From NCBI GenBank assembly GCA_020061125.1, contig JAGUYV010000035.1, positions 1 to 8,280 on the forward strand: DNA of 8,280 bases, given 5' to 3'. The DNA comes from a bacterium (GTDB lineage Bacteria > UBP15 > UBA6099 > DSWB01). Below are positions 1 through 7,687 of the stretch, piece after piece. Each line of letters starts with the position of its first letter. Position 1 is the first letter of the stretch. Position numbers and translations under genes: made by a program. The notes beneath the pieces were generated by a model. The model saw nothing but the letters and a program-made list of their open reading frames with translations. It was not told the origin of the DNA and searched no databases.

Positions 1-14
1 CGCTCTTCCGATCT
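1..14. other. Illumina adapter remnant at contig end
   Basis: The first 14 bases, CGCTCTTCCGATCT, equal the 3' end of the standard Illumina TruSeq/Nextera-era universal adapter. They sit exactly at the window edge, which is where untrimmed adapter normally survives in an assembly. They are not genomic. The last four codons of the partial gene at 1-450, and most of the codon before them, therefore derive from adapter; genuine sequence begins at position 15. Confidence 0.93.
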
Positions 15-450
15 CCGAAGCCGGCTCCGTAAATACTGCCATGAACAGGCGCTCGTCCTGCAGGAACAGCATCGAAGGAGCCGTGCATGCGCTTTCATAC
101 ATGGCACCATCGTATTCCACGCCTGGAGACAGCGTGCGGTAGTCCGCTCCCGGCATGATCCACAGATCCGGCGATGCGCGCCTCATGGCGGAAAACACGA
201 GGCCCGCGCCGAACGACCCCGACAGGGTCCACGAACGCCGCACGGTAATGCACCCGGTCTCAAAGGAAAATATGTCTCTGATATGAGTGTCGCCGCCGAA
301 CCGGGCATGCACGCTGTCCCCGTCCGTGGCGATTTCCGAGGCGAACACGGCGCTGCCGTCAACCGTGATCTGATAGGGAATCAGAAACAGTTGGACGCCT
401 TCGTGCTCCAGGGACACCAGATGTTTGAAAGCAGCGGTTTCTATGCGCAC
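1..450 (-). CDS. 5' part of an unrecognised beta-rich protein, possibly carbohydrate-related
   Basis: An uninterrupted frame of 150 codons runs from a GTG at 450 to the left edge; the last five residues (EIGRA) are wholly or partly adapter-derived. The start follows the stop of the preceding gene by 7 bp. A GGTAG containing that stop codon lies 7 bases upstream as a weak ribosome binding site, so translation is probably coupled. No in-frame ATG was found just upstream. The protein starts RIETAAFKHL and alternates hydrophobic and polar residues, as in antiparallel beta-sheets (VQLFLIPYQITVDG, TVRRSWTLSG, SMLFLQDERLFMAVF). No signal peptide or transmembrane segment is visible. This resembles the N-terminal beta-sandwich found in some large glycoside hydrolases, but I do not recognise the family; the carbohydrate role is inferred from the GH35-like gene in the same operon. 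Confidence 0.7.
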   Translation of the reverse strand, partial: MRIETAAFKHLVSLEHEGVQLFLIPYQITVDGSAVFASEIATDGDSVHARFGGDTHIRDIFSFETGCITVRRSWTLSGSFGAGLVFSAMRRASPDLWIMPGADYRTLSPGVEYDGAMYESACTAPSMLFLQDERLFMAVFTEPASEIGRA

Positions 451-457
451 GACGAAG

Positions 458-1276
458 CTACCGTTTTGTTTTGTTCCGCAAAATCCGCGGCAGAAGCCGG
501 ATGGCGAGCCGCATGCGCCAGGGGCACGGCCCGAGCGTCACCCACCCGTTGTGCACGCACTGCGCCAGCGCCTGCGCGGGGCTGGGATGGCGCACAATGT
601 GCATGAACGCGTGTCGGTCACAGAACAGCCCGAGATGCGCCGGACCCCGCCGCTCCGCGCATCGTCCGAGCAGCAATGCGACACGCTGTTCCATGCTTTT
701 GCCAGACAAGTCCAGAGGTTCAAGCAAGGCGCTTGTTGAAATGAAAACAATCTCATTGTCTCTGAATTCCAAAATAAGGCTTGCCCAAAGCCCCTCATGA
801 TCGTCAAAGACAAATGCAGCCAATATAAACTTTTTATAAGTTAACTTTCTAAAAATTGCCGGGATTCCGGATTTGATGTGATTGAGGGTTGGCGCCGGAT
901 CCGGCCATGCATGAATCCCGGCGCCAAGTTCCGCGCCCAGAGCGCGGAGCAGGGTCTGCCCCTGCGCGGTGAATGGATCCGCGAAGTCAATGCCGGATTG
1001 CGCGGCCGCAGCCAGCCGCTTGATGGCATTGCGTTCCAGGCATACGACCCAATCCGCGTCATGCTGTGCGGCAAGCTCGTTCAGCCGCTGCGGACCGAAG
1101 AACTGCACTGGAACGCCCGGGCCTTTACGGGTATGAACGGCATGCAGAAGCCTGCTGCCGCTGTAGAAAAGGATCAGTCCGGCGCCGCGTACACCCCGGG
1201 GCGGGTTCAACAGTTTCATGACCCGCTCATACTGATCCGGCGCTATATCTATGATTTCCACATTGCTTGAAAGCAT
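458..1276 (-). CDS. Unrecognised 272-residue cytoplasmic protein in a GH35-like operon
   Basis: I do not recognise this protein. The ATG is preceded by GGAAG with a 5-base spacer, a fair ribosome binding site. It starts 27 bp after the stop of the GH35-like gene and ends 7 bp before the next gene, so it sits inside the operon. It has no signal peptide and no clear membrane helix. Visible parts are an N-terminal alpha/beta segment with a glycine-rich strand-turn (RGVRGAGLILFYSGSRLLHA, about 27-46), a middle segment (about 60-125) with alternating strands and helices, and a second beta-rich segment (LILEFRDNEIVFISTSALL, about 167-185). The tail (253-272) is very basic. Histidines and cysteines are scattered and form no metal-binding motif I can name. 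The coding frame is convincing from length, spacing and composition; the function is unknown. Confidence 0.8.
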   Translation of the reverse strand: MLSSNVEIIDIAPDQYERVMKLLNPPRGVRGAGLILFYSGSRLLHAVHTRKGPGVPVQFFGPQRLNELAAQHDADWVVCLERNAIKRLAAAAQSGIDFADPFTAQGQTLLRALGAELGAGIHAWPDPAPTLNHIKSGIPAIFRKLTYKKFILAAFVFDDHEGLWASLILEFRDNEIVFISTSALLEPLDLSGKSMEQRVALLLGRCAERRGPAHLGLFCDRHAFMHIVRHPSPAQALAQCVHNGWVTLGPCPWRMRLAIRLLPRILRNKTKR

Positions 1277-1303: not shown

Positions 1304-3469
1304 TCAGATATCTCCAGGAATGGATTGATTTTTTCCTGCGTTGCGCGTGACGATAAATGCCCGGACTTTGTGCGGACCAAGAGGTATATGCGGGCTTGGG
1401 CCGGGAAAAGATTCTCCGGAAAATGCGTCCATCAGAATTTCCCCGTCTTTCAGCCTGATGCGCGGGTTCGCGCGGTCCGGGGCGGTGTTGGCCGCGAAGA
1501 GCACATTGGCGTTTCCCCCGGTGTGCAGAGTGGTTTCCACAAGCGGGTCATCGGGCGGATACAATGGCTCGATGCCCGCTCGCGCGGCCAGGCGGCGCGC
1601 CAGTTCCGCCGCGTGAGGCGTGCGATCAATGTCCGTGTAATCCGGGAACATGAAGCCCAGGAATATGATGGCGCCGCGCTCCATGGGCCGCTCGTACGCC
1701 ACGCATTTGCCCCGGCTTTCCACAAATGCGTGCGGGGCGTCGAACACCTGCGCGCGGCGCAGCATCATGCCGTTGTAATCAAGCTCATCAATATAATCCA
1801 CGGGATCGAGCAAGTGGGAGGCGAAGCGCGCCGACGGCAGCAGATACTCGTCCATCTCGGGCACGCGCGGCCCGAGCGCGAGAACTCCGCCCTTGAGCGC
1901 GTAGACCAGCAGTTTCTTCTGCAGCGCGGTGTTCATGAACGCGAACGACGGCGCAACCACCAGGCGATAGCTCTGGAGCGCTTCGGCGGAAATGTCCGAA
2001 TCCGGGTATTCCAAGGTCACGCCCGCCTGTGAGAACCCTTTCTGCCAGGTGCGCCACTGGCGGCGGTAACGCCGCACGGGCGACTCGGGCAGGGCGTCCA
2101 TGGGCGGATGCGCGCAGAACCAGTCTCTGGGCAGTCCCGCCGGAGAAAAACCCGGCGCAGGAGAAGACAGGGAGCAGAGGCTCTCGAACCGCTCGTAGTC
2201 CCGCATGCGCAACAGCGCGCCCCGCGCCTGCATGCGCGCCTTGTTCAGGCCTGTGTCTTTCAAGAACTTGTTGAGGTTTACATAAAATGAATAAGCAGGA
2301 TTTCTGCGGCGTCCGTCGCGCGATAAAGGCGCTCCCTGCCAGCGGTCACAATCCGCAAACAGATAATGGTTCGCCGCCTTGGTTCCATTCATGAGCGCGG
2401 CCAGGACCGCGGATTGCCTGTCGTCGAAAGAATACGGCGCGCCCAGGGGATTGCAGCCCGCGCCCATAGTGCAGAAGGGCAGACGGCTGTCCGCGGCCAG
2501 GGCGCGGGCCGTATCGCGCACCCTTGCGTAGTCCTCCCGCCCGGCGAACAACTCGACACCCGCCAGGTCCGCGGCCGCTCCTTCAGTCCCGAATAAATGA
2601 AACGGCGTCTCCGGCAGCCAGGGGTATGTCATCAGCGTAAACGCGCCGCCAAGGCCCCGTTCCTTGAGCATGCCGGTCAGCCGGTTCGCGCCGTAATAAA
2701 CTAAAAATTCCTTGAATTCGGACCAGTCCACAAAATACGGCATGCGCGATGACGCGCCGGGCAGGAACTCGCGCGGCGGAAGAATGTCCGCAAACCGCGC
2801 GTGCCGCTTCCCGTACAATTCATTCACCGTCTGGATGTCGCCGTGGCGGCCGCGAAGGAAATCGCGGTAAAGCGCCACCGCCGCATCACAGTAATCCAGA
2901 TCAAAACACTGGGTGCGGCGCAGCATAGTTGCCGCGCTGTCCGCCTGCACGCCGATGACCGGCCCCGCGGGGTGCATCCGGGGCGCAAGCTCTTTGCACA
3001 CGGCGTCATACCACACAGCCGTTTCCTCATAGAATGCGGAACTGGCGTAACTGGGAACCGGGTAAAATCTGGGAGGGACCGGGGCAAGTGCGAAGGTACC
3101 GTCTGAAGTGCGCGCCAACAAGTCTTCACGCTCCAGAATTCTTTCTGGATATCCAGAGCAGTTAAGCTCTGCGCCCGTGTGCGGCCCAAGCACAGCCACC
3201 ACAAAAAGCTCTTTTTCAAAGCAGAGATTCAAAAATTTGCCCAGGCTTTTGGAATCGTCTGTTTTTCCGAAATCAAAAATACCATTGCTCGTCTCATGCA
3301 CGCTCCAGGGAATGGTGATACTGACCATGGCGAACCCGGCTTCGCGCACTCGATCCAGAATTCTTCCCCAGGCGCTGGCGTCGTGCCGCCAATAGTGGAG
3401 GGCCGCGCTCATAAACGGTTTTTCGATGCCCCCGAGGATTATTCCGTGATACCCGATTTGTAACGGCAT
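1304..3469 (-). CDS. GH35/GH42-like glycosidase relative with both catalytic acids apparently lost
   Basis: The 721-residue protein has the layout of clan A beta-galactosidase relatives. The TIM barrel starts near residue 10 with SAALHYWRHDASAWGRIL (21-38; compare the GH35 'G-x-HY-R ... W' start), IPWSVHE (53-59) and LGPHTGAELNCSGYP (94-108; compare GPYicAEWdfGGlP). The acid/base strand reads IGVQADSAA (172-180) where the family has Q-x-E-N-E, so Ala179 replaces the acid/base Glu. The nucleophile strand reads LPFCTMGAG (330-338), placing Met335 where Glu is expected. NGTKAANHYLFADCDRW (361-377) closes the barrel. Residues about 480-555 resemble the flavodoxin-like trimerisation domain of GH42 enzymes, and a beta domain ends the protein (about 640-708). 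There is no signal peptide and no clear ribosome binding site; the gene starts 37 bp after the HTH gene ends. It probably binds rather than hydrolyses a sugar; the substitutions are read by eye. Confidence 0.85.
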   Translation of the reverse strand: MPLQIGYHGIILGGIEKPFMSAALHYWRHDASAWGRILDRVREAGFAMVSITIPWSVHETSNGIFDFGKTDDSKSLGKFLNLCFEKELFVVAVLGPHTGAELNCSGYPERILEREDLLARTSDGTFALAPVPPRFYPVPSYASSAFYEETAVWYDAVCKELAPRMHPAGPVIGVQADSAATMLRRTQCFDLDYCDAAVALYRDFLRGRHGDIQTVNELYGKRHARFADILPPREFLPGASSRMPYFVDWSEFKEFLVYYGANRLTGMLKERGLGGAFTLMTYPWLPETPFHLFGTEGAAADLAGVELFAGREDYARVRDTARALAADSRLPFCTMGAGCNPLGAPYSFDDRQSAVLAALMNGTKAANHYLFADCDRWQGAPLSRDGRRRNPAYSFYVNLNKFLKDTGLNKARMQARGALLRMRDYERFESLCSLSSPAPGFSPAGLPRDWFCAHPPMDALPESPVRRYRRQWRTWQKGFSQAGVTLEYPDSDISAEALQSYRLVVAPSFAFMNTALQKKLLVYALKGGVLALGPRVPEMDEYLLPSARFASHLLDPVDYIDELDYNGMMLRRAQVFDAPHAFVESRGKCVAYERPMERGAIIFLGFMFPDYTDIDRTPHAAELARRLAARAGIEPLYPPDDPLVETTLHTGGNANVLFAANTAPDRANPRIRLKDGEILMDAFSGESFPGPSPHIPLGPHKVRAFIVTRNAGKNQSIPGDI

Positions 3470-3505: not shown

Positions 3506-4000
3506 TTAATCATCGTGCTCGATATTTGAGAACAGCTCCATGAGTTTTCGCCGGCGCTTGGCGGTCACTATCATGTCTTCCGTAACCACGCAGCCCTGCT
3601 CGAAGAGCAGGTTCCCATCGTCGTCAAACATATCCCGCAGAAGGGTCTTGCCGAGCATATAGGCCCGTTGCCGCATTTCCGCGGTGGACATGGGTTCGGC
3701 CTCCGGCTCACGCTGGGGCATGCGCACATGCGTGGCCGACGCTGGCGCAGGCGGTGGCGCGGCAGGGCGCGGATCCTGTGCGGAGGCTGGCGCGGGTGTG
3801 CCGGATGATGAGACCGGAATGCCCGGCCCGTCCGGAGACAGCATATCCAGCAGGTCCTTGCCAAGGAATCTGTGCTGTTTGCCTATGCGCGTGCTCTTGA
3901 GCCGCTTGTCCTTGAGCATCCTCTTGATTGTTGGGAGGCTCACCTTGAGCAACTCCGCAACTTCTTTTGTGGTATAGACTTCGTTGGGTTCAATTTGCAT
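3506..4000 (-). CDS. Excisionase/MerR-type HTH protein with C-terminal HD-GYP-associated-like segment
   Basis: Residues 8-55 (VYTTKEVAELLKVSLPTIKRMLKDKRL, split here by position, then STRIGKQHRFLGKDLLDML) are a canonical HTH_17/excisionase-type winged helix-turn-helix: helix 1 TKEVAELL, recognition helix SLPTIKRMLK, and the RIGKQHRF wing. Proline- and alanine-rich residues 56-105 form a flexible linker. The C-terminal part (110-160), with LRDMFDDDGNLLFEQG and VVTEDMIVTAKR, resembles the short 'D-x-x-G-x-x-L-x-x-x-G-x-x-(L/V)-T' segment found ahead of HD-GYP and related signalling domains; the enzymatic domain itself is absent. It is the first gene of the four-gene minus-strand operon and is likely its regulator, or a DNA-binding partner. 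No strong ribosome binding site is seen; GGGGCGGCG lies 6 bases upstream. Phage excisionase is an alternative reading, but no other phage gene is present. Confidence 0.85.
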   Translation of the reverse strand: MQIEPNEVYTTKEVAELLKVSLPTIKRMLKDKRLKSTRIGKQHRFLGKDLLDMLSPDGPGIPVSSSGTPAPASAQDPRPAAPPPAPASATHVRMPQREPEAEPMSTAEMRQRAYMLGKTLLRDMFDDDGNLLFEQGCVVTEDMIVTAKRRRKLMELFSNIEHDD

Positions 4001-5017: not shown

Positions 5018-5395
5018 TCAGGGAGAAACCAGTTTGCGATATTCCTCAAGGGCCTGTTCGAGTTTATCGGGATCCATGAGGCCGATGTCCACGATGAGTT
5101 CAGCCTGGTTTTCGGCCGAAGCGTTCTGCATGGCCAGAACCTCATCCACCTGCGCCTGTGTCATGAATCCGCGGTCGAGCATGATCTGGCCGATGCGCTG
5201 TTCCGCGCCGCACGAGGCTTGGTGCGTCAGCGCCTTTTCAAGCTGCTCCACGGTGATGTATTCTTCGCGCAGCGCAAGCACTCCGAAAAAAAACCTGCTT
5301 TTCTGAAGCATGCGCACGGTGTCCACATGCGGCCCTTTGAGGTATTCCCGCTGGATGAGAAAATCAAGGAAAGTGATTTTTTCCGGTTCCGTCAA
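5018..5395 (-). CDS. Small stand-alone MshEN-like repeat protein
   Basis: The protein is 125 residues when started at the TTG at 5395, which has AAAGGA nine bases upstream. An ATG at 5548 would add 51 residues, but they do not look protein-like and that start overlaps the rightward promoter at 5542-5570. The protein is made of helical repeats of the MshEN / type II secretion ATPase N-terminal kind: FGVLALREEYITVEQLEKAL (37-56), RIGQIMLDRGFMTQAQVDEV (67-86) and LIVDIGLMDPDKLEQALEEY (100-119). A degenerate first copy spans about 8-35. The pattern is (L/I)-G-x-x-(L)-x-x-x-G-x-(I/M)-(T/D)-x-x-Q-(L/V)-x-x-A-L. In larger proteins MshEN binds c-di-GMP, but the long MshEN c-di-GMP motif is not clear here, so ligand binding is uncertain. 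No ATPase domain follows and no membrane segment is seen. It is probably an adaptor or sensor; function otherwise unknown. Confidence 0.8.
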   Translation of the reverse strand: MTEPEKITFLDFLIQREYLKGPHVDTVRMLQKSRFFFGVLALREEYITVEQLEKALTHQASCGAEQRIGQIMLDRGFMTQAQVDEVLAMQNASAENQAELIVDIGLMDPDKLEQALEEYRKLVSP

Positions 5396-5404
5396 GCGGC
5401 TTGA

Positions 5405-5410
5405 TCCTTT
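5405..5410 (-). promoter_or_regulatory. Ribosome binding site that sets the TTG start
   Basis: On the minus strand AAAGGA lies nine bases before the TTG at 5395. It is the best Shine-Dalgarno match near any candidate start of the MshEN-like gene. This decides the start over the ATG at 5548. Confidence 0.6.
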
Positions 5411-5473
5411 AGCCGGGCCGGTCAGCCCCGGAATTTGTCCAAAGATCCGGGGCAAAGCCTGTTTCCCGGCCTT

Positions 5474-5503
5474 ATTGTTACACAGATTCCCGGTGTCAGA
5501 CAA
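5474..5503 (-). promoter_or_regulatory. Possible leftward promoter of the MshEN-like gene
   Basis: On the minus strand TTGTCT and AACAAT, each four of six consensus matches, are separated by 18 bases. Transcription would begin about 70 bases before the TTG start. It lies back to back with the rightward promoter at 5542-5570 in the same intergenic region. Confidence 0.32.
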
Positions 5504-5541
5504 GAGGAGCCTCCATTTCCCGCTTTGCGCAACGGCTCGCG

Positions 5542-5570
5542 TTGACATCGCCCCATGCCGGGATTATTAT
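5542..5570 (+). promoter_or_regulatory. Near-consensus sigma-70 promoter for the aldolase
   Basis: A perfect TTGACA (5542-5547) is followed by exactly 17 bases and TATTAT (5565-5570), five of six matches to the -10 consensus. The predicted start near 5577 leaves a leader of about 174 bases before the aldolase ATG. This is the clearest promoter in the window. Confidence 0.75.
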
Positions 5571-5750: not shown

Positions 5751-6584
5751 ATGTTTTACGGAACCGACTGGGGCATGCAGAACCGCATGAGCCGGATCAT
5801 CAACCCCGAGACGGGCGGCTGCCTGATGCTGGCCGTGGATCACGGCTATTTCCAGGGGCCGACCACGGGACTGCGCGATCTGGACAAAGCGGTGATGCCG
5901 CTGCTGCCGTATTGCGACGCGCTCATGATAACCCGTGGCGCGCTGCGCGCTTTCATTCCTCCGAAGATGAACAAGCCCATCGTGTTGCGCGTGTCGGGAG
6001 GCCCCACCGTGCTCAACGAGCTTTCCAACGAATACATCACCACGGCCATTGAGGACGCCATCCGCATCAACGCCGCGGCCATCACCTGCTCGGTCTACAT
6101 CGGCTCCGAATTCGAGACCCAGTGCGTGGACAACCTGGCGCAGCTTGTGAACGAGGGCGAACGCTATGGCATTCCGGTGCTCGCCGTGACCGCCGTGGGA
6201 CGGGACATGAACCGTGACGCGCGTTTTCTGGGCCTGGCGTCCCGCGTGTGTGTGGAAATCGGCGCGCACATGATCAAGACCTATTATTGCGAAGGGTTCC
6301 GCAGTGTGGTCAAAGCCTGCGGAAACGCGCCAGTGGTCATGGCCGGTGGCAAGAAGATACCGGAACGGGAAGCCCTGCAGATGGCGCACAACGCCGTGGC
6401 CGCGGGCGCCGTGGGCGTGGACATGGGCCGAAACATTTTCCAGAGCGACAAGCCCGTGGGCATGATCCAGGCCGTGCGCGCCATGATCCACGAAAAAGTG
6501 TCCGTGGAAGAAGCGTACAAAATGTATCAGAGCTACCGTCCGGCGGGAGCGAAAAAGAAAAGCGTCCCGCGCAAGAGCAAATAA
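5751..6584 (+). CDS. lsrF: LsrF-type class I aldolase/thiolase (DeoC/FbaB/LacD superfamily)
   Basis: This 277-residue protein aligns along its whole length with E. coli LsrF, the 3-hydroxy-5-phosphonooxypentane-2,4-dione thiolase of AI-2 breakdown. Shared blocks are DWGMQNRMSRIINPETG (6-22), LAVDHGYFQGPTTGL (27-41), the TRG motif (61-63), and VYIGSEFE (115-122). Lys176 in HMIKTYY corresponds to the Schiff-base lysine. AGGKKIPEREAL (198-209) and GVDMGRNIFQSD (222-233) form the phosphate-binding end of the barrel. It is slightly shorter than LsrF at the N terminus and ends in a lysine-rich tail (265-277). GAGG lies seven bases before the ATG. None of lsrA-D, K, R or G is in the window, and the next gene is a dehydrogenase. 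The reaction class (aldol or thiolytic cleavage of a phosphorylated ketose-like compound) is secure; AI-2 as substrate is not. It is cytoplasmic. Confidence 0.9.
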   Translation: MFYGTDWGMQNRMSRIINPETGGCLMLAVDHGYFQGPTTGLRDLDKAVMPLLPYCDALMITRGALRAFIPPKMNKPIVLRVSGGPTVLNELSNEYITTAIEDAIRINAAAITCSVYIGSEFETQCVDNLAQLVNEGERYGIPVLAVTAVGRDMNRDARFLGLASRVCVEIGAHMIKTYYCEGFRSVVKACGNAPVVMAGGKKIPEREALQMAHNAVAAGAVGVDMGRNIFQSDKPVGMIQAVRAMIHEKVSVEEAYKMYQSYRPAGAKKKSVPRKSK

Positions 6585-6629
6585 CGCGCCGCCCATGCCG
6601 GATCCGTTATTGATGTGAGCCAATCCCTC

Positions 6630-6657
6630 CAGCCCCCGGACGCGACTCCGGGGGCTG
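6630..6657 (+). terminator. Strong GC hairpin between aldolase and dehydrogenase genes
   Basis: CAGCCCCCGGA and TCCGGGGGCTG form a perfect 11-bp stem around the six-base loop CGCGAC. Only TTGCCATT follows, so a U-tract is nearly absent. It may be a weak or factor-assisted terminator, an attenuator lowering dehydrogenase expression, or an RNA-stabilising 3' hairpin. It ends 15 bases before the ribosome binding site of the next gene. Confidence 0.55.
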
Positions 6658-6688
6658 TTGCCATTCCGCGCCGGAGGAGTCTCGCGCC

Positions 6689-7687
6689 ATGAAAGCCGCC
6701 GTGTACTACAGCAATTCGGATCTTCGATTGGAGGAAATGCCCGTTCCCGCGATCGGCCCCGGAGAGCTGCTTGTGAAGATCATCGCCTCGGGCATTTGCG
6801 GAACGGATGTGATGGAGTGGTACCGCATCCGCAAGGCCGGCCGCATCCTGGGGCATGAGATCGCGGGTGATGTGGTCGAAGCAGGCGAGGGCGTTACGGA
6901 GTTCGCGCCCGGGGACCGCGTGTTCGTTTCCCACCATGTGCCGTGCAACGCGTGCAAATACTGCGCCGCGGGCCACCACACGGCTTGCGAGACCCTGCAT
7001 TCGGGCAACTACGATCCGGGCGGTTTCTGCGAGTTCGTGCGCATTCCCGCGATCAATGTGGCGAACGGAACCTACCGGCTCCCCGGCGCCATGCGCTACG
7101 AGGAGGCGGTGATGATCGAGCCTCTGGCGTGCGTGGCGCGCGGCCAGCGCGTGGCGGATATCCGCGACAACCACACCGTACTCGTACTGGGGTGCGGCAT
7201 TTCGGGGCTGATGAACATCCAGTTCGCAAAGTACCGTGGCGCAACGGTCGTGGCCACGGATGTGAACTTGTACCGTTTGGAAAAAGCCAAGAGCTACGGT
7301 GCGGACCAAGTGGTGCACGCGAGCAAGAGCCTGGACGGGCTGAAAGCCGACCGGGTGATCGTGTGCACGGGCGCGGAAGCCGCGCTGGCGCAGGCCTATC
7401 AGTGTGTGGATCGTGCGGGCGTGATCCTTTTCTTCGCCATTCCCCACGAAGATTTCAAAGTGCCCGTGGTGGACTTCTGGCGCAACGAATGGACCCTGGC
7501 GTCCACATACGGCGCCGCGCCCTGCGACCTCGAAGAGGCTCTAGAGCTTATTGGCAACCGCACGCTGAATGTGATGGATATGATCACGCACCGTCTGCCG
7601 CTGTCCCGCATTCAAGAAGGGTTTGAAATCGCAGCCGCGGCCGCGGGGGATTCCCTCAAAGTCGTCATTTTCCCGCACCAGATCTGA
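6689..7687 (+). CDS. Zinc-dependent medium-chain alcohol/polyol dehydrogenase
   Basis: The 332-residue protein is a full-length MDR enzyme oxidising an alcohol or polyol, or reducing the reverse, with NAD(P). Catalytic zinc ligands are visible as Cys37 in GICGTD, His56-Glu57 in GHE and Glu144 in IEPLACV. Cys86, Cys89, Cys92 and Cys100 form the structural zinc lobe. The Rossmann motif is GCGISG (168-173); Asp191 at the end of the second strand favours NAD. GGAGGAG (6673-6679) lies nine bases upstream of the ATG, a strong ribosome binding site. The gene follows the aldolase by 104 bp on the same strand, so the two probably act in one pathway. Closest named relatives by feel are L-threonine 3-dehydrogenase and sorbitol/galactitol dehydrogenases; substrate cannot be fixed. 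It converges with the TPR gene 62 bp away. Confidence 0.92.
   Translation: MKAAVYYSNSDLRLEEMPVPAIGPGELLVKIIASGICGTDVMEWYRIRKAGRILGHEIAGDVVEAGEGVTEFAPGDRVFVSHHVPCNACKYCAAGHHTACETLHSGNYDPGGFCEFVRIPAINVANGTYRLPGAMRYEEAVMIEPLACVARGQRVADIRDNHTVLVLGCGISGLMNIQFAKYRGATVVATDVNLYRLEKAKSYGADQVVHASKSLDGLKADRVIVCTGAEAALAQAYQCVDRAGVILFFAIPHEDFKVPVVDFWRNEWTLASTYGAAPCDLEEALELIGNRTLNVMDMITHRLPLSRIQEGFEIAAAAAGDSLKVVIFPHQI

What the first reader, a model, noticed from the sequence alone, without database searches (positions are those of the whole stretch)
1304..3469. GH35/GH42-like protein that seems to lack both catalytic glutamates
The barrel landmarks are well kept (HY near residue 25, AE at 100-101, barrel-closing strand near 361-377). 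The acid/base motif reads QADSA instead of Q-x-E-N-E, and the nucleophile strand reads FCTMGAG instead of ending in Glu. Losing both residues while keeping the fold over 721 residues suggests selection for sugar binding, sensing or a scaffold role. The alignment was made by eye.
Basis: partly seen in the sequence, partly recalled or inferred. Interest (0 to 1): 0.62.

Follow-up and report, generated by a model that had tools for sequence, protein, structure and literature searches.

The report
Sugar-enzyme relative missing its catalytic residues
A bacterium of the little-known candidate phylum UBP15 carries a protein built like a sugar-cutting enzyme (glycoside hydrolase family 35) in which both cutting residues and most of the sugar pocket have been replaced while the gene stayed intact beside its usual neighbours, so it has probably been kept for a non-cutting job, although closer relatives would be needed to prove that.

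Summary
The gene runs on the minus strand (3469->1304, 721 aa, uninterrupted). [quoted passage not shown] The acid/base Glu is Ala179; the nucleophile position is Thr334, beside a one-residue deletion. All 45 reference homologues have both Glu; a 46th, Dive96_bin1.91, has lost only the acid/base. Five of seven published -1 subsite residues are gone, and 18 of 72 nearly invariant columns (references 0-7, Dive96 10). Four UBP15 orthologues are intact, so the loss is lineage-specific. Open frame, normal codon bias and kept gene order (HTH, GH35-like, orfB, orfA) favour a maintained pseudoenzyme over a pseudogene, but no close relative exists for dN/dS and the branch is accelerated. Side results: orfB is an undescribed gene just downstream of these GH35-like genes in bacteria and ANME-2 archaea. 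A second GH35-like family, in 117 of 146 genomes searched around another bacterium, lacks at least one catalytic Glu in 69 of 70 members read.

The parts
1304..3469 (-). GH35-like (GlmA/IaSGT subfamily) protein, 721 aa, lacking both catalytic Glu
2933..2938 (-). codons 178-179 (Ser-Ala) at the Asn-Glu acid/base motif (IaSGT N175-E176)
2465..2473 (-). codons 333-335 (Cys-Thr-Met) at the nucleophile position (IaSGT E343), with a one-residue deletion relative to homologues
458..1276 (-). orfB, 272 aa, no Pfam/NCBIfam/PDB match; family found immediately 3' of the GH35-like gene in many phyla
3506..4000 (-). HTH_17 DNA-binding protein, 164 aa, first gene of the conserved UBP15 cluster
1..450 (-). 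orfA, N-terminal 150 aa of a ~660-670 aa protein of unknown family (cut by the contig end)

Best explanation
It is a GH35 pseudoenzyme. The ancestor was an ordinary retaining GH35 enzyme of the GlmA/IaSGT type, probably cytosolic, encoded in a fixed cluster with orfB. In this UBP15 lineage the acid/base Glu (to Ala), the nucleophile Glu (to Thr, with a one-residue deletion) and three more of the seven -1 subsite residues were replaced, so the double-displacement reaction and the ancestral glycone pocket are gone (shown by alignment, not by assay). The protein kept its barrel, alpha/beta and beta domains (predicted) and its place between the HTH and orfB genes.
For: Both Glu are missing where all 45 reference homologues have them. 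IaSGT -1 subsite residues Y52/E102/N175/E176/N275/E343/Y378 correspond to window T52/E101/S178/A179/T281/T334/Y369 (PMC8861115, where E176Q and E343Q keep <0.4% and <0.1% activity). Losses are enriched in the subsite: 5/7 vs 13/65 other near-invariant columns, Fisher p 0.009. The full-length fold is kept: pLDDT 90.6, Z 40.6 to IaSGT. The frame is intact with high third-position G+C like its neighbours. About 8.6 stops would be expected under neutrality and none is seen. The HTH-GH35-orfB-orfA order is shared with intact UBP15 copies. Dive96 also keeps a full ORF with a damaged active site. A precedent exists: a separate GH35-like family in which 69 of 70 members read lack a catalytic Glu, one double-null pair having dN/dS about 0.09.
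Against: The branch is accelerated (0.88-1.11 vs 0.40-0.43 for Dive96, against 0.20 vs 0.14 for rpoB), as also expected during decay. No orthologue closer than 45% was found, so dN/dS cannot be measured. The stop-count argument assumes the active-site columns were free for the whole period; at a quarter of that time P rises to 0.12. Whether Dive96 and the window share one loss is unresolved (p-AU 0.33). In Dive96 orfB lies on another contig, so the pairing is not obligatory.
Confidence: 0.6

Rival explanations
1. The gene is simply decaying: catalysis became useless in this lineage and the protein is drifting, not yet broken by a stop or frameshift.
For: 18 of 72 near-invariant columns lost; accelerated branch; four intact orthologues in the phylum; a half-way state in Dive96.
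Against: No stop or frameshift in 721 codons although about 8.6 stops are expected for the neutral time implied by the lost columns; synteny and codon bias intact; 54 of 72 near-invariant columns kept, losses concentrated in the sugar pocket.
Confidence: 0.27
2. The protein is still an enzyme by another route: a migrated carboxylate, an exogenous nucleophile, or a different reaction in the same barrel.
For: Glu101, Asp177, Glu296, Asp192 and Tyr369 are kept. In GlmA another Glu (306) near the site also contributes to activity (PMC6566704).
Against: No new Asp/Glu appears at the barrel mouth; new acids are only at 160, 203, 287 and 327. Both Glu-to-Gln mutants of IaSGT are essentially dead. The -1 pocket residues equivalent to Y52, N175 and N275 are also lost.
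Confidence: 0.11
3. Artefact of eye alignment, wrong frame or MAG mis-assembly.
For: Single 8,280-base contig of a 513-contig MAG at 79% completeness.
Against: Other frames do not restore either motif; the neighbours match UBP15 synteny; many linked amino-acid changes, not a single error; alignment to 45 homologues is well anchored by G338, Q175 and D177.
Confidence: 0.02

Closest known systems
IaSGT (IALB_1185), Ignavibacterium album beta-1,2-glucosyltransferase, GH35, PDB 7VKW-7VL5/7X87 (PMC8861115)
   Same: Full-length domain match: A2 profile E 4e-88 over positions 10-644; window model Z 40.6, rmsd 2.8, 653 residues, 20% identity.
   Different: IaSGT has acid/base E176, nucleophile E343 and a complete -1 subsite; the window has lost both Glu plus the equivalents of Y52, N175 and N275.
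[quoted passage not shown] PDB 5GSL, 5GSM, 6JOW, 8OUG)
   Same: Same domain order and fold, Z 37.9-40.4 for the window model; NF041127 hit at E 1.9e-26 but far below its 1500-bit cut-off.
   Different: GlmA has Glu179 and Glu347, both needed (PMC6566704); the window has neither.
Intact UBP15 orthologues (UBA6099, ADurb.Bin236, USMO_maxbin.112, USCA_metabat.19)
   Same: 44-45% identity; three show the same HTH-GH35-orfB-orfA order, while in USCA_metabat.19 the contig ends after the GH35-like gene.
   Different: Both catalytic Glu and the whole -1 subsite are kept.
Known glycosidase pseudoenzymes (klotho in GH1, chitinase-like proteins in GH18; from general knowledge, not tested here)
   Same: Glycosidase fold with catalytic Glu lost, kept for binding or scaffolding.
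   Different: Different GH families and mostly eukaryotic; no homology tested.

Membership tests
Glycoside hydrolase family 35 (sequence/fold) | Significant match to the GH35 profile | tested here: met
   PF01301 E 6.9e-21, 75.6 bits vs cut-off 27, residues 11-127; the family profile matches IaSGT over its whole length
Glycoside hydrolase family 35 (sequence/fold) | TIM-barrel plus C-terminal domains of the GlmA/IaSGT type | tested here: met
   AF2 model pLDDT 90.6, pTM 0.92; VIA-align Z 40.6 to 7VL0 and 40.4 to 5GSL; Foldseek E 4e-43
Active retaining GH35 / clan GH-A enzyme | Acid/base Glu at the end of beta-4 | tested here: not met
   Ala179
Active retaining GH35 / clan GH-A enzyme | Nucleophile Glu at the end of beta-7 | tested here: not met
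   Thr334 with an adjacent deletion
Active retaining GH35 / clan GH-A enzyme | Other -1 subsite residues Y52, E102, N175, N275, Y378 (IaSGT numbering) | tested here: not met
   T52, E101, S178, T281, Y369: three of these five lost
GH42 | GH42 as best-matching family | tested here: not met
   PF02449 E 2.2e-7, weaker than GH35; GH42 structures Z about 30-33 vs 40 for IaSGT/GlmA
Pseudoenzyme | Conserved catalytic motif absent by sequence (definition in PMC10211241) | tested here: met
Pseudoenzyme | Protein maintained by selection for a non-catalytic function | tested here: inconclusive
   open frame, synteny, stop-count argument; no close orthologue for dN/dS
Pseudoenzyme | No measurable activity | not testable with these tools
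   needs an assay

The most novel reading that the evidence does not exclude
The GlmA/IaSGT-like GH35 fold has been turned, separately in at least two bacterial lineages, into conserved non-hydrolytic proteins: here in UBP15 beside the undescribed partner orfB, and across another lineage where 69 of 70 members read lack at least one catalytic Glu and 16 lack both. That would make pseudo-GH35 proteins a recurrent, selected class in bacteria.
Probability: 0.45. Interest if true: 0.65.

Novelty: new variant of a known kind. Interest (0 to 1): 0.45.

Why it matters
My paper searches found no report of a bacterial GH35 pseudoenzyme, though most subscription journals are not in that library. Annotation pipelines would call this gene a beta-galactosidase or glycosidase. 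The case gives a graded series inside one candidate phylum (intact, acid/base lost, both lost), and points to orfB, an unannotated family next to these genes from ANME-2 archaea to Clostridia, as the place to look for the function. The second family would be wrongly counted as carbohydrate-degrading capacity in most genomes of its lineage.

Tried and rejected
The first genome-contig scan with the single protein found nothing; the alignment-based one worked. A migrated catalytic residue was sought and none found. A hidden frameshift was sought and not found. A shared single loss with Dive96_bin1.91 looked supported in the full tree (99/77); with the active-site columns removed it was neither supported nor rejected, so I do not claim it. 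orfB and orfA had no Pfam or PDB relatives. An intact paralogue in the same genome was sought: only a distant GH35 gene (32% over 114 aa, both Glu present) was found, in a genome that is 79% complete. A residue-level structural superposition was not possible, as model coordinates are not exposed; residue equivalence rests on sequence alignment plus the strand positions in both models. The phylum of the second GH35-like family could not be named (genome handles are anonymous).

Full report
WHAT IS THERE. The feature is a 721-aa ORF on the minus strand, 3469 to 1304. It matches Pfam GH35 (E 6.9e-21), the GLMA-like second domain (4.4e-10) and, weakly, GH42 (2.2e-7). A profile of its family matches the I. 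album beta-1,2-glucosyltransferase IaSGT over profile positions 10-644 (E 4e-88), and also the archaeal exo-beta-D-glucosaminidases. AlphaFold2 models of the window protein (pLDDT 90.6) and of an intact orthologue (92.2) have the same fold. The best structural matches of the window model are IaSGT (Z 40.6, 653 residues, rmsd 2.8) and GlmA (Z 40.4) (Foldseek agrees). So it is a GlmA/IaSGT-type GH35 protein, not a classical GH35 beta-galactosidase or GH42.

THE ACTIVE SITE. IaSGT Glu176 and Glu343 are acid/base and nucleophile; E176Q and E343Q have under 0.4% and 0.1% activity (PMC8861115). GlmA Glu179/Glu347 are equivalent (PMC6566704). In alignment A2 (window, Dive96_bin1.91 and 45 reference homologues) these columns are Glu in all 45 references; the window has Ala179 and Thr334. 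Of the seven IaSGT -1 subsite/catalytic residues (Y52, E102, N175, E176, N275, E343, Y378), the window keeps only Glu101 and Tyr369. Of 72 columns that are at least 95% conserved in the 45 references, the window has lost 18, Dive96_bin1.91 (L022) 10, and the references 0-7 each. The losses are enriched in the subsite (5/7 against 13/65, p 0.009). No alternative frame restores the motifs, and no new acidic residue appears at the mouth of the barrel.

ORTHOLOGUES AND HISTORY. The named relatives place the genome in candidate phylum UBP15 (UBA6099, ADurb.Bin236 and others). All seven UBP15 genomes held have the gene; one (G005) is cut at a contig end, so its state is unknown. Four copies have both Glu. 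Dive96_bin1.91 has lost the acid/base (PDSGM for ADNEM) and the equivalents of Tyr52 and Tyr378, but keeps the nucleophile. The window has lost both Glu. Window and Dive96 share six of their lost columns (hypergeometric p 0.013). With the active-site columns removed, the tree neither supports nor rejects their being sisters (p-AU 0.33), so one or two losses are both possible. The window branch is 2.1-2.6 times as long as that of Dive96, against 1.4 times for rpoB.

MAINTAINED OR DECAYING. In favour of maintenance: 721 codons without a stop; codon-position G+C of 0.63/0.48/0.71, like the neighbours; the same gene order as in the intact copies; and a rough clock. If the lost near-invariant columns were free to change, 0.29 missense changes per codon have accumulated, and a neutral gene would then have about 8.6 nonsense changes (P(0) about 2e-4; 0.014 at half and 0.12 at a quarter of that time). 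Against: accelerated evolution and no close relative for dN/dS. I put 0.6 on a maintained pseudoenzyme and 0.27 on slow decay.

NEIGHBOURHOOD. In UBP15 the order is HTH_17 regulator, GH35-like, orfB, orfA. orfB (272 aa in the window) has no Pfam, NCBIfam or PDB relative. An orfB profile finds it just downstream of the GH35-like gene in ANME-2 archaea, Deltaproteobacteria/Myxococcota, Chloroflexota and Clostridia, and fused to it in L042 (the Clostridia and some Chloroflexota scores are weak). In ANME-2 archaea a GT2 glycosyltransferase lies directly upstream. In Clostridia the pair sits with sugar ABC transporter genes and other glycosidases. So the ancestral enzyme probably acted on cytosolic or membrane-linked glycans together with orfB (inference). 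In Dive96, where the acid/base is lost, the pair lies on different contigs. A role for the dead copy as orfB partner is the mechanism I think most likely, but nothing here shows that the two proteins bind.

A SECOND, WIDER FAMILY. A distant homologue in genome G015 (L010) also lacks both Glu. Its orthologues occur in 117 of 146 genomes searched around G015. Of 70 read, 42 keep only the acid/base, 11 only the nucleophile, 16 neither, and one both. A pair of double-null orthologues (88% identical) has dN 0.082 and dS 0.90, i.e. strong purifying selection. This family is separate from the window's and has no orfB neighbour at the one locus examined. It shows that GH35-like proteins without the catalytic pair can be fixed and selected. 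The sample is the 30 best-scoring matches plus 40 chosen from the rest of the list, not random.

NOVELTY AND VERDICT. Glycosidase pseudoenzymes are known in other families (general knowledge). I found no report for this branch of GH35. The window gene by itself is a new variant of a known kind; its function is inferred, not shown.

Noticed in passing
L106-L135 and L140-L179 (first seen as L010:1453-3645:+): A second GH35-like family, present in 117 of 146 genomes searched around G015, in which 69 of 70 members read lack at least one catalytic Glu and 16 lack both; one double-null pair has dN/dS about 0.09. Possibly a lineage-wide pseudo-GH35.
   Followed up: partly
window 458-1276 (-) and homologues in L021, L024-L031, L033-L039, L043, L045, L057 and others: orfB: an undescribed ~280-aa family sitting immediately 3' of the GH35-like gene in bacteria and ANME-2 archaea, fused to it in L042, with no Pfam, NCBIfam or PDB match.
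   Followed up: partly
window 1-450 (-); L021:10967-12982, L083:2744-4720: orfA: a ~660-670-aa protein family without Pfam or PDB match, the last gene of the UBP15 cluster.
   Followed up: partly
window 3506-4000 (-): HTH_17/excisionase-like DNA-binding domain followed by a conserved C-terminal segment; first gene of the cluster and a candidate regulator.
   Followed up: no
window 5018-5548 (-): Protein with an MshE-type cyclic-di-GMP-binding domain (NF053729, 50 bits).
   Followed up: no
window 5751-7687 (+): LsrF-type aldolase (NF006081, 404.7 bits) followed by a zinc alcohol dehydrogenase, a possible two-gene sugar-phosphate pathway; no homologue at the orthologous GH35 loci checked.
   Followed up: no
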